DNA from: Brevibacillus brevis
GTDB lineage: Bacteria; Bacillota; Bacilli; Brevibacillales; Brevibacillaceae
Reading direction: 5' to 3'
NCBI RefSeq assembly: GCF_900637055.1
Contig: NZ_LR134338.1
Location: forward strand, 2,614,001 to 2,678,000
Length of the DNA: 64,000 bases
Under the pieces are notes generated by a model. It worked only from the letters and a program-made list of their open reading frames with translations. It was not told the origin of the DNA and ran no database searches. The stretch's first letter is position 1; each line of letters opens with the position of its first letter. The position numbers were made by a program, and so were the translations under genes. Shown here piece after piece: positions 26,714-47,015 of this stretch.

Positions 26714-29700
26714 TTGCATTTTGTTCAGACATTAGTAGAAGCGCTGGAATTGTGGAAGAACGAGGAACATAAAGGCGTTACCTTCATTTTGGGAGACCAG
26801 AATGAGGTGTTTGTTTCCTATAAAGAATTGTATGAAGAAGCCCTCGGCTATTTATTTGTCCTTCAAAGTAATGGAATCAAGCCTGGAGATGAGGTCGTTT
26901 TTCAAATTGAGGATAGTAATCTCCGAACTTTTGTCTGCCTTTTTTGGGGATGCTTACTCGGTGGAATGATTGCTGTTCCGATCTCTGTAGGGGATAACGA
27001 AGAGCATCGTCTTAAGCTGTTAAAGGTTTGGAAGACATTAATCAATCCGTATCTCATTACGACGGACAGCGTCTGGAAACGACTGGAGGATTTCTTTAGC
27101 AAACACAACTACCTGACGGAAATGGAATCATTGAAGTCGAAGTCCTTCCTGCTTGATGAGACTGGGAAAAAGGAAGAGAAGGGCACAATCTATTATCCTA
27201 CTGCAGATCAAGTGGCCTTTATCCAATTTTCATCTGGGTCTACAGGAGATCCAAAAGGGGTTACCCTGACCCATGAAAACCTTGTCCATAATGTGCTTGC
27301 GATTAATAACAGACTTGGAACGACTGAGTCTGACTCATTTCTAAGCTGGATGCCCTTAACTCATGACATGGGGATGATCGCGTTCCATTTATCCCCGTTG
27401 TATGCAGGAGTTCAGCATTATTTTATTCATACCTCACTATTTATCAGGCGGCCTACGCTATGGCTGAAGAAAGTAAGCGAGCACAAGGCGACGATTACTT
27501 CTTCTCCGAACTTTGGGTATAAATATGTGTTGTCCAGGTTTAAACCGGAAGTGGCAGAAGAGTGGGATTTGTCTACGCTTCGCGCGATTTTAAATGGAGC
27601 AGAACCCATTGCTTCAGAATTAATCTATCATTTTTTGGAACAGATGAGCCCTTATGGATTGAAGAAAACGAGCATGCTCCCGTGCTATGGATTAGCAGAA
27701 GCCTCTGTGGGAGTATCGATACCTGATCAGAATCAGCATTTTACAACGCTTTCTCTAGATCGTAGGTTTATCCAGGTAGGGAAGCCAATCAAGATGTCGG
27801 ATCATACAAATCCAGAGGCTCTCACACTGGTAGAAGTCGGTTACCCCATCGATTTTTGCGAGGTAAGAATATGTGACGACGAGGATCATGAGCTGCCAAG
27901 CGAAACGGTTGGCCATATCCAGATTAGAGGGAAGAATGTAACCGCTGGATACTACAACAACCCTGCTGCCACCGCAAATGTAATGACGGCTGATGGATGG
28001 CTCAGAACCGGGGATCTGGGTTTTATGCGAAAGAAACATCTTGTCATTACGGGGCGTGCCAAAGATATCATCTTCGTGAATGGTCAAAACGTTTATCCGC
28101 ATGATATTGAGCGGATTGCTGAAGAAGTCGAAGGAGTCGAGCTTGGGAAGGTCGTTGCCTGCGGGGTATTCAACGAGAAAAGCAAAGAAGAGGATATTCT
28201 TGTGTTTATCCTGCATCGGAAAAGTGTAGACGAGTTCGTTGCGCTGTCTAAGAAAGTGAAAACGCATTTGAACGAGCGAACAGGATGGAGAATAAGCGAG
28301 GTCTTGCCGATTCAGCGCATCCCCAAAACAACGAGTGGAAAAGTGGAACGATATAGAGTAGCTAGGGAGTATCAGTCTGGAGCATTTCGCGATGTTTCCG
28401 AGGAAATGCAGCGCCGAATCACCGAACAGGAAAAAGAGGAAAGAACCGATAAATCACCACACTTGCGGGAAGAATTAGAAAAACAAATGCTTGCCATTTG
28501 CCGCGAGGTGCTTCAATCAGACAGATTGGGACCAAACGACAGTTATTTTGACATAGGCGTGTCCTCTATGCAGTTGACCCAGTTAGCAGGGCGGATAGAA
28601 GAAGAGATGGGGATCACGCTGGCGGTAACAGATTTGTTTGCCTATCCGACGATCTCCAAGCTTTCTCGCAGTCTCTTCGACGGCGAACAAACGACTGATC
28701 GCATAAAAGAGACTGATACGAGCCAACAGATACACAAGGATATCGCTATTATCGGGATTTCTTGTAAGTTCCCGCAGGCTCAGGATGGGGATCAATTTTG
28801 GCAAAACATCCGGGGAGGAAAGGATTGCATTCATGAGCTTCATGGTCAGAGACGAAAGGACGCAGAACAATATGTTTCGCTGGTAAGAGGCGAGCAGGGT
28901 AATCCTAACCTTGTGGAGGGTGGTTATTTAGAGGAGATAGACAAGTTTGACTATTCGTTCTTCTCGATCACCCCGAAAGAAGCGAAGCTAATGGACCCCA
29001 ACCAAAGGCTGTTCCTCCAGAATGCTTGGAATACGCTAGAGGATGCAGGCTATGGCGGGCACAAGCTTTCAGGGGAAAAAGTAGGGGTGTATGTCGGCTT
29101 CTCCAAGCTGGGATACGATTACGAACGCCTTTTGTCAGTGGTAAGTCCCAAAGATTTGCCCTCTTATGCAGTAGGCAACCTTCCTTCCATTATTGCAAGC
29201 CGCATTTCGCACCTGCTTGATTTGCGCGGCCCTGCTGTCACCGTGGATACAGCTTGCTCTTCTTCCTTGGTTGCGGTTCATATGGCGTGCAAGGCTATCC
29301 AAAACGGTGATTGTGAGATGGCATTGGCAGGTGGAGTCAAAACCATCCTGCTGGCGCAGAAGGCTGGAATCGGAATGGAATCCTCTGACAACCGTTCCAG
29401 AGCGTTTGACGATCAATCTGATGGAACAGGTTGGGGCGAAGGCGTAGCTAGTGTTCTGTTAAAGCCCTTGGAAAAAGCCATCGAGGACGGGGATCACATC
29501 TATGCCGTGATTAAGGGAAGCGCTGTTAATCAAGACGGCGTTACAGTCGGGATTACCGCACCGAATTCACAGGCCCAGGCAGAATTGATCGTAGACGCTT
29601 GGGAGGATGCGCAAGTCGACCCTGAAACGATTAGTTATATAGAGGCGCATGGAACGGGTACAAAGCTGGGGGACCCCGTTGAGCTGGATGGAATTCAGAG

Positions 29701-47015: not shown

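What the first reader, a model, noticed from the sequence alone, without database searches (positions are those of the whole stretch)
26714..47015. Iturin-type loading machinery fused to a three-residue assembly line: predicted beta-amino-acyl-Orn-D-X-Phe lipotripeptide
Seen: domain order FAAL-ACP-KS-ACP-aminotransferase-C-PCP, followed by only three intact A domains (codes DVGEIGSIDK, DSWDIGLIGK, DAWTIAAICK), one epimerase after the second, and two synthetase genes. Known: the starter order matches mycosubtilin/iturin synthetase MycA, which builds a beta-amino fatty acid; iturins carry seven residues. The first and third codes are those of Orn and Phe in gramicidin S/tyrocidine synthetases. 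Inference: this locus makes a short lipotripeptide that is cationic through Orn, unlike the neutral, cyclic iturins. I do not know of a described product with this sequence.
Basis: partly seen in the sequence, partly recalled or inferred. Interest (0 to 1): 0.85.

Follow-up and report, generated by a model that had tools for sequence, protein, structure and literature searches.

The report
Three-residue lipopeptide synthetase, unusual release domain
A Brevibacillus gene pair that should build a small lipopeptide (a beta-amino fatty acid plus ornithine, an unknown D-residue and phenylalanine), and that ends, in place of the usual release enzyme, in a little-noticed type of domain that probably closes the molecule into a ring.

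Summary
Two parts were missed: a vestigial A domain between C1 and its PCP, and a last domain (45426-47012) in place of a thioesterase. The locus is in 9 of 26 genomes of the genus, codes unchanged. It is in print as an unknown "PK-orn-x-phe" hybrid of nine Brevibacillus strains (PMC9867215).

The terminal domain (TERM) forms a third lineage of the C/E superfamily (SH-aLRT 100). All 42 distinct copies examined end their protein; 38 read [S/D/N/T]HxxxDxxS instead of HHxxxDG. It also ends two paenilipoheptin-type synthetases, with no thioesterase seen there. Paenilipoheptin A is a macrocycle closed on the beta-amine (PMC11959586). I therefore favour beta-amine macrolactamisation, giving a 13-membered cyclic lipotripeptide, over the implied non-cyclic product. 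Other three-residue synthetases of this kind exist in unnamed relatives. Product, residue X and release reaction are unproven.

The parts
26714..28393 (+). FAAL (fatty acyl-AMP ligase) loading domain, about aa 1-560 of gene 1
   Evidence: Pfam AMP-binding 3.9e-55
28466..28678 (+). ACP1 (about aa 585-655)
   Evidence: PP-binding 4.1e-14; serine motif GVSSM
28736..30013 (+). ketosynthase (KS), aa 675-1100; active-site motifs present
   Evidence: ketoacyl-synt 9.5e-77 / 8.2e-43; DTACSSS, HGTG, KANIGH
30029..30598 (+). post-KS linker; no AT domain
   Evidence: CurL-like_PKS_C 1.2e-21, RhiE-like KS-MAT linker 4.4e-15; no Acyl_transf_1 hit
30629..30829 (+). ACP2
   Evidence: PP-binding 6.9e-16
31388..32533 (+). 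aminotransferase (AMT), aa 1559-1940: beta-amination
   Evidence: Aminotran_3 3.3e-53; lysine motif TYGKVPGGG
32744..34057 (+). C1, the C domain that follows AMT, aa 2011-2448
   Evidence: Condensation 5.7e-82; groups with 5 of the 7 other post-AMT C domains of the tree, SH-aLRT 99
34133..34333 (+). vestigial A domain (remnant around motifs A7-A8, by eye), aa about 2474-2540
   Evidence: C1 ends at aa 2448 and PCP1 starts at 2555; local BLAST matches to the same stretch of gene 1 in 2 of 4 relatives compared, G508b and G497; G022 keeps A-profile 371-479 at this place
34376..34579 (+). PCP1
   Evidence: PP-binding 2.1e-15
34634..37783 (+). module 1: C-A(DVGEIGSIDK, Orn-type)-PCP
   Evidence: code identical to the fifth A domain of the own TycC-type protein
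37784..40918 (+). module 2: C-A(DSWDIGLIGK, unassigned X)-PCP
40919..42271 (+). epimerisation (E) domain, HHLVVDG
   Evidence: TIGR01720 1.1e-46; in the E group
42291..45425 (+). gene 2, module 3: C (DCL-type)-A(DAWTIAAICK, Phe-type)-PCP
   Evidence: code identical to the own TycA-type A domain
45426..47012 (+). terminal C-superfamily domain (TERM) with motif SHLIFDLIS in place of HHxxxDG, plus a pre-domain of about 100 aa; proposed release/macrocyclisation domain
47152..48426 (+). MFS transporter, proposed exporter; present in 8 of 8 other carriers
   Evidence: MFS_1 2.8e-34; conservation
48508..49722 (+). RND-type adaptor, proposed export/self-protection; full length in 7 of 8
   Evidence: TIGR01730 3.2e-59
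49726..52770 (+). RND permease, proposed export/self-protection; 7 of 8
   Evidence: ACR_tran 1.2e-181

Best explanation
The two genes form a trans-AT hybrid assembly line. FAAL activates a free fatty acid and loads ACP1. KS extends it by two carbons from malonate supplied in trans by an acyltransferase encoded elsewhere. AMT replaces the beta-keto group with an amine. C1 passes the beta-aminoacyl group onto PCP1, whose A domain is vestigial, so no residue is added there. Modules 1-3 add Orn, D-X and Phe. The chain beta-aminoacyl-Orn-D-X-Phe-S-PCP is released not by a thioesterase but by the terminal C-like domain (TERM), which most likely lets the beta-amine attack the Phe thioester, giving a 13-membered cationic cyclic lipotripeptide that the neighbouring MFS and RND transporters export. 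Shown: domains, codes, motifs, conservation, the TERM family and its place at the end of paenilipoheptin-type synthetases. Inferred: each chemical step, malonate supply in trans, beta-amine macrolactamisation, export. Unknown: X, fatty-acid length, configuration of Phe, activity.
For: Domain order, codes and motifs. No thioesterase: gene 2 gives only Condensation, AMP-binding, PP-binding and AMP-binding_C up to E 0.01. TERM relatives are the last domain in 13 genomes outside the genus, of 398 drawn from the class; 42 of 42 distinct copies of the last survey lie 1-15 aa from the protein end (9 of the 42 are the window's copy and its orthologues). [quoted passage not shown] so does an 11.3-kb contig of G534 whose three codes fit Phe-Tyr-Glu. 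Pfam on the last 700-800 aa of both finds after PCP only the partial Condensation match, apart from a weak TPR match at 0.058 in one. Paenilipoheptin A is closed between its C-terminal Glu and the beta-amine (PMC11959586, part 1 of 3 read). In the genus that I take to be Paenibacillus, 13 of 34 AMT-starter places have a TERM within 60 kb; a crude random placement gave a mean of 0.94, maximum 5, in 2000 trials. TERM has no Glu at the position aligned to the Glu of the E-domain motif EGHGR in 14 of 14 aligned copies, which argues against plain epimerase function. 38 of 42 copies read [S/D/N/T]HxxxDxxS, like the SHxxxDxx(T/S) that PMC10212144 reports for an atypical fungal C subtype (LCL-A); fungal CT domains macrocyclise and keep HxxxDxxS (PMC11546977) (passages read).
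Against: No product of this locus is known and nothing was assayed. The window's TERM is only 26-28% identical to the G022 one. A 121-row quick tree joins it with G022, pHD02 and G051 (96), but the larger TERM tree puts it with G508b, G400, G419, G454 and G471 (97/94), apart from G022, G534 and pHD02 (99/99). AMT and TERM are not tied: 21 of 34 AMT places in the genus have no TERM within 60 kb; AMT-cluster TERMs are scattered over the TERM tree (7 changes; shuffled mean 12.2); TERM also ends clusters with no AMT seen, some after a PKS module (G171; also G353, which has AMT), or after a KS/C-A-PCP order that would suit tetramic acid formation (G273, G298, G064). TERM is barely similar to fungal CT by sequence (TqaA E about 0.01). 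That the paenilipoheptin TERM does the ring closure is inferred from position; the text I read does not say it. A 13-membered ring is strained, and the Orn side-chain amine could compete.
Confidence: 0.57

Rival explanations
1. One reading: the same chain is released by hydrolysis (TERM as a hydrolase, or TERM inactive with an external thioesterase acting), giving a linear cationic beta-aminoacyl-Orn-D-X-Phe acid.
For: No cyclic product is demonstrated. A review states that the CT domain of fungal IvoA hydrolyses its substrate (PMC11546977 passage). The Gly of HHxxxDG is Leu or Phe in the Brevibacillus TERM copies.
Against: No thioesterase or alpha/beta-hydrolase family was found in the window genes scanned (some small ORFs were not scanned). 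TERM keeps the second His and the Asp in 42 of 42 copies. The structurally known relative is cyclic (PMC11959586).
Confidence: 0.17
2. TERM closes a ring, but not through the beta-amine: the Orn side-chain amine attacks (smaller ring with a free beta-amine), or an external amine is attached, as terminal C domains of some other bacteria are recalled to do.
For: C-superfamily release domains vary in what they do (PMC11546977); Orn offers a second amine; TERM occurs in clusters without AMT.
Against: Paenilipoheptin A carries a Lys and still closes on the beta-amine (PMC11959601, PMC11959586). No gene for making an amine donor was seen among the neighbouring genes scanned.
Confidence: 0.16
3. TERM is a divergent epimerase that only sets D-configuration at the last residue, and release is done by a thioesterase encoded elsewhere.
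For: Paenilipoheptin A has an unexplained D-Glu as last residue where L-Glu was predicted (PMC11959601). TERM shares E-like stretches in its C-terminal half, such as ILFNYLG.
Against: TERM lies outside the E group (26 E rows, SH-aLRT 98; TERM 14 rows, 100); hhalign scores to E, LCL and DCL are similar and low (136, 147, 158, against 280 for E-LCL); no Glu at the aligned E-domain position in 14 of 14 (one copy, G394, has Glu at the next position).
Confidence: 0.1

Closest known systems
PK-orn-x-phe hybrid of Brevibacillus A6-branch strains (PMC9867215)
   Same: Same predicted residues and order, same genus; very probably the same cluster (passages read; its Figure S23 was not seen).
   Different: Reported there as an unknown four-module scaffold; the passages seen do not discuss starter chemistry, release domain or product.
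Paenilipoheptin synthetase PhnC-PhnE (Paenibacillus; PMC11959601, PMC11959586)
   Same: In its G022 homologue: FAAL-ACP-KS-AMT-C-(remnant A)-PCP starter and a TERM domain in place of a thioesterase (also G534 for the end); the published product is closed on a beta-amino fatty acid.
   Different: Seven residues instead of three; in G022 a trans-AT gene sits beside it; TERM only 26-28% identical.
Mycosubtilin/iturin synthetase MycA-C with FenF (PMC3039948, PMC3870968, passages read)
   Same: Starter logic: acyl ligase, ACP, KS, aminotransferase, malonyl transfer in trans.
   Different: Lipoheptapeptides; release by a thioesterase (recalled); malonyl transferase gene in the operon. Here three residues, one cationic, TERM, and no adjacent transferase.
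   Same: AMT starter, three amino-acid modules, TERM at the end (one gene is split in G536b).
   Different: Codes Gly-type, Orn/Lys-type, Val-type (labels recalled); two E domains; trans-AT gene adjacent.
   Same: First gene has the same domain order and nearly the same size (5249 aa); second amino-acid module has the identical X code plus E; of the four clusters compared it has the nearest AMT (72%) and TERM (33%).
   Different: Four more modules, other codes, AT gene adjacent.
Fungal terminal condensation-like (CT) domains such as TqaA
   Same: C-superfamily domain at the synthetase end with HxxxDxxS, release without thioesterase (PMC11546977 passage); SH at the motif start is recalled for CT.
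   Different: Sequence similarity marginal (E about 0.01).

Membership tests
Beta-amino-fatty-acyl lipopeptide synthetases (iturin/paenilipoheptin starter) | FAAL-ACP-KS-ACP-AMT-C-PCP order with intact motifs | tested here: met
Beta-amino-fatty-acyl lipopeptide synthetases (iturin/paenilipoheptin starter) | malonyl transferase gene beside the synthetase | tested here: not met
   none in the window; nearest of the five Acyl_transf_1 loci of the genome lies about 89 kb downstream (2750316, 424 aa)
Iturin/mycosubtilin family proper | seven alpha-amino-acid modules | tested here: not met
   three modules
Iturin/mycosubtilin family proper | C-terminal thioesterase (recalled) | tested here: not met
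   gene 2 ends in TERM; no TE hit
Paenilipoheptin family | TERM domain as last domain (as in G022/G534 homologues) | tested here: met
   the published strains' own genes were not read
[quoted passage not shown]
   window codes are Orn-type, X, Phe-type
Paenilipoheptin family | macrocycle closed on beta-amine | not testable with these tools
   needs the product
Epimerisation (E) domain (for TERM) | falls inside the E group of the tree | tested here: not met
   (quick method, long branches): E 26 rows one group (98), TERM 14 rows another (100)
Epimerisation (E) domain (for TERM) | HHxxxDG and the Glu of EGHGR (role of the Glu recalled) | tested here: not met
   SHLIFDLIS; no Glu at the aligned position in 14 of 14 TERM
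Fungal CT domain (for TERM) | HxxxDxxS motif in a domain at the synthetase end | tested here: met
   window SHLIFDLIS; of 42 distinct TERM 40 read HxxxDxxS, 2 end in T
Fungal CT domain (for TERM) | clear sequence homology to CT rather than to other C domains | tested here: not met
   TqaA at E about 0.01, ranked behind more than 50 other chains; no tree with fungal CT was built
Fungal CT domain (for TERM) | macrocyclising activity | not testable with these tools
   biochemistry needed
PK-orn-x-phe cluster of PMC9867215 | PK, Orn, X, Phe modules in A6-branch Brevibacillus | tested here: met
   codes; named carriers B. formosus, B. porteri and B. fortis; identity with their Figure S23 not checked

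The most novel reading that the evidence does not exclude
TERM is an undescribed third branch of the C/E superfamily: a bacterial release domain that macrolactamises beta-aminoacyl peptides without a thioesterase. It would account for ring closure, and perhaps for the unexplained last D-residue, in paenilipoheptin, and here it makes a 13-membered cationic cyclic lipotripeptide (a cyclo-tetrapeptide with one beta-residue), a ring size that I link from memory to sponge cyclic tetrapeptides with a beta-residue.
Probability: 0.42. Interest if true: 0.78.

Novelty: new variant of a known kind. Interest (0 to 1): 0.6.

Why it matters
If TERM is a release cyclase, many lipopeptide and hybrid synthetases of Bacilli that end in it (34 of 75 genomes of one genus, taken to be Paenibacillus, carry TERM) get their release step assigned, products now drawn as linear might be redrawn as cyclic, and a compact two-gene, three-module system conserved in the Brevibacillus brevis group would be a convenient test case. 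Pfam's Condensation profile matches TERM over only about a third of its length, so standard annotation may show it as a truncated condensation domain and hide it.

Tried and rejected
A further NRPS gene in the operon: rejected; the genes that follow are transporters. GFO/Idh/MocA oxidoreductase at 52807-53937 as tailoring enzyme: rejected; an essentially full-length copy is in only 2 of 8 other carriers. TERM as a plain E domain: not favoured. Assigning X: failed; apart from G508b (60%) the best neighbours are Gln- and Ser-type A domains (labels recalled) at 38-40% identity. Structure prediction of TERM from four near-identical sequences: mean pLDDT 31, useless, so no fold search was made. Epifadin EfiE CT relationship: three TERM queries hit no Staphylococcus plasmid, but I do not know whether that plasmid is in the collection. 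Published m/z families of Brevibacillus (984/1002/1020; brevipentins 603-645; PMC10753013 passages): no link made. The scan of named genomes with the single TERM protein found only three Brevibacillus loci. Literature searches for a described product or for this domain: (open-licence PMC papers only); PMC12654256 (passages) and PMC13036774 (passages) gave nothing on it.

Limits of the evidence: the TE profile used on the fetched clusters was built from one sequence (TycC), so absence of TE outside the Pfam-scanned stretches is weak. In one search, 77 rows fell to 43 after dropping partial matches and near-copies; one of the 43 (L067, 83 bits, 1171 aa from the end, HHIILDGWS) was left out of the count of 42 as an ordinary C domain; 7 further rows whose frame was cut by a locus end were not counted, and are cut copies of the Brevibacillus orthologues. 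The tree left out 5 of the 9 near-identical Brevibacillus rows.
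Full report
WHAT IS THERE. The window is bases 2614001-2678000 of a single-contig 6.73 Mb genome that also carries what look like tyrocidine (A-PCP-E; three modules plus E; six modules plus TE) and linear gramicidin synthetases (names recalled), i.e. a Brevibacillus of the B. brevis group; three named carriers of the locus are B. 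formosus, B. porteri and B. fortis. Genes 26714-42274 and 42291-47015 encode 5186 and 1574 residues. Pfam and local profiles give FAAL-ACP-KS-ACP-AMT-C-PCP-C-A-PCP-C-A-PCP-E and C-A-PCP-TERM (the local profiles alone did not print ACP2, Pfam did). Motifs of KS, AMT, C and E are present. The A codes, calibrated on the genome's own TycA-type protein, are exactly those of the finding; the first and third are identical to A domains of the genome's own tyrocidine-type synthetases.

WHAT WAS MISSED. First, between C1 (ending at aa 2448) and PCP1 (from 2555) lies a stub that reads like the A7-A8 region of an A domain; G022 keeps more of it (A-profile 371-479 of 484). This fits transfer of the beta-aminoacyl group to a PCP without adding a residue. 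Second, no acyltransferase is encoded in cis or nearby; the genome has five loci with Acyl_transf_1 (six matches), the nearest about 89 kb downstream, so malonate would have to come in trans. Third, and most important, the last 529 residues of gene 2 (pre-domain plus C-like domain, called TERM here) are not a thioesterase. Pfam recognises only positions 31-183 of the 456-position Condensation profile, and the catalytic motif reads SHLIFDLIS.

CONSERVATION. The locus is present in 9 of 26 genomes of the genus, the window's own included, with TERM 88-92% identical in the other eight and the three codes unchanged in all nine. Both synthetase genes and the MFS gene are in 8 of 8 other carriers, the RND adaptor and permease in 7 of 8, the oxidoreductase at essentially full length in 2 of 8. 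That argues for a maintained function with MFS (and usually RND) export, and against the oxidoreductase as part of the pathway.

THE TERM FAMILY. A profile of three TERM sequences found the domain (E up to 1e-25) in 22 of 398 genomes drawn from the class, 13 of them outside the genus. With the G022 TERM as query (E up to 1e-20), 34 of 75 genomes of the genus of G273 have it (unnamed, taken to be Paenibacillus), and 15 of 100 of another genus of that family. A quick phylogeny of 121 C-superfamily domains puts 14 TERM in one group (SH-aLRT 100), 26 E in another (98) and the C domains in the rest; the tool warns of long branches, so the exact rooting is unsure. Profile-profile scores of TERM to E, LCL, DCL and the post-AMT C domains are similar and low (136, 147, 158, 177) compared with E-LCL (280) and LCL-DCL (539). 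Of 42 distinct TERM copies (9 of them the window's copy and its orthologues) 42 lie 1-15 residues from the end of the protein and keep the second His and the Asp, and 38 have S, D, N or T instead of the first His; the four that keep it are pHD01, Eleftheria, G508c and G051. TERM also ends quite different lines: PKS modules (G171, G353), KS/NRPS hybrids (G064, G273, G298, G394), and short A-PCP-TERM proteins on a Paenibacillus and an Eleftheria plasmid.

LINK TO A KNOWN PRODUCT. Genome G022 carries, besides the window's cluster, a second AMT cluster of 4210, 1550 and 6953 aa plus a 439-aa transferase. [quoted passage not shown] labels recalled) and its first E domain has DPNVADTLS, the same DPxxxD defect reported for paenilipoheptin (PMC11959601, parts 1-2 of 3 read). 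It ends in TERM, as does an 11.3-kb contig of G534 with Phe-, Tyr- and Glu-type codes; Pfam finds no thioesterase in the last 700-800 residues of either. Paenilipoheptin A is a macrocycle closed between the C-terminal Glu and the beta-amine (PMC11959586, part 1 of 3 read), and its D-Glu is unexplained (PMC11959601). The inference that TERM closes that ring is mine; the text I read does not say it. In the genus of G273, 13 of 34 AMT-starter places have TERM within 60 kb, against 0.94 on average (maximum 5) for crude random placement; of the other 21, 11 sit in first genes of 3967-3993 aa, the size I recall for MycA, i.e. probably iturin-like lines.

MECHANISM. Acid activation, two-carbon extension, beta-amination and transfer follow MycA biochemistry as summarised in PMC3039948 and PMC3870968 (passages read). 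D-configuration at position 2 is supported by the E domain and by the C domain of gene 2, which groups with DCL domains and the first C domains of the own TycB/TycC-type proteins. For release I put beta-amine macrolactamisation first, hydrolysis second, another nucleophile third. Against my reading: the window's TERM is only 26-28% identical to the G022 one and, although the first tree joins them (96), the larger one places it with G508b and related lines instead; TERM occurs without AMT and AMT without TERM; and TERM is only marginally similar to fungal CT by sequence. So TERM may work like a CT domain, but I do not file it as one. It is also not filed as an E domain: it lies outside that group and has no Glu at the aligned E-domain position in 14 of 14 copies.

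RELATIVES OF THE WHOLE LINE. Of four clusters compared, the nearest by AMT (72%), module-2 A domain (61%, identical unassigned code DSWDIGLIG, also followed by E), gene-2 C domain (51%) and TERM (33%) is the G508b seven-residue synthetase, whose first gene has the same order and nearly the same size (5249 aa). KS is nearer to the paenilipoheptin and G497 type (70%), the Orn A domain to G497 (51%), so the line is a mosaic. Three-residue AMT lines with TERM also exist in G497, G508 and G536 (one gene split in G536), with Gly-type, Orn/Lys-type and Val-type codes (labels recalled).

PRIOR NOTICE. [quoted passage not shown] The cluster is therefore not unseen. Bacterial CT-type release has also been proposed before, for epifadin and malonomycin (PMC11310079 passages), while PMC10212144 lists its CT subtypes as found only in fungi (passage). 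I found no description of TERM as a family or of this product in searches, which cover open-licence PMC papers only.

VERDICT. Observation confirmed; interpretation partly supported. The locus is a conserved, uncharacterised three-module member of the beta-amino-acyl lipopeptide synthetases with a TERM release domain. The novelty lies in the release domain more than in the residue order.

Noticed in passing
G000:C1:2848001-2888000 (L087, L088): A second AMT-containing hybrid cluster in the same genome (KS-PCP-AMT-C-PCP-C-A-PCP-E and neighbours); no TERM or TE was found by local profiles in the 40 kb read.
   Followed up: partly
G508:C1:1088001-1128000 (L126, L125): Seven-module AMT/TERM lipopeptide synthetase whose second amino-acid module has the same unassigned code DSWDIGLIG as the window's X module.
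   Followed up: partly
L069, L071 (G171, G353): TERM directly after a PKS module (KS-AT-PCP-TERM), so its substrate there would be a polyketide thioester.
   Followed up: no
L075, L079, L081 (G273, G064, G298): A PKS-NRPS of about 5550 aa ending KS-PCP-C-A-PCP-TERM beside a FAAL-PCP-KS gene, in three genera; the order would suit a tetramic acid.
   Followed up: no
L065 (Eleftheria terrae NZ_CP106952.1) and L066 (Paenibacillus pHD01): Short A-PCP-TERM proteins on a betaproteobacterial and a Paenibacillus plasmid, keeping HHxxxD.
   Followed up: partly
L093, L094 (G273:C1:4104001-4144000): A MycA-like first gene followed by a second gene that ends in a C domain, with no TE or TERM found by local profiles in the 40 kb read.
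   Followed up: no
window 26391-26735: Small ORF directly upstream of and overlapping gene 1 with no Pfam match; its first residues recall a phosphopantetheinyl transferase, perhaps a decayed gene (impression only).
   Followed up: partly
window 48508-52770: An RND adaptor/permease pair, unusual in a Gram-positive, next to the synthetase and lost in 1 of 8 other carriers.
   Followed up: partly
window 19397-23913: A gyrase/topoisomerase IV-type subunit pair about 3 kb upstream of the synthetase; whether it is the housekeeping copy was not checked.
   Followed up: no
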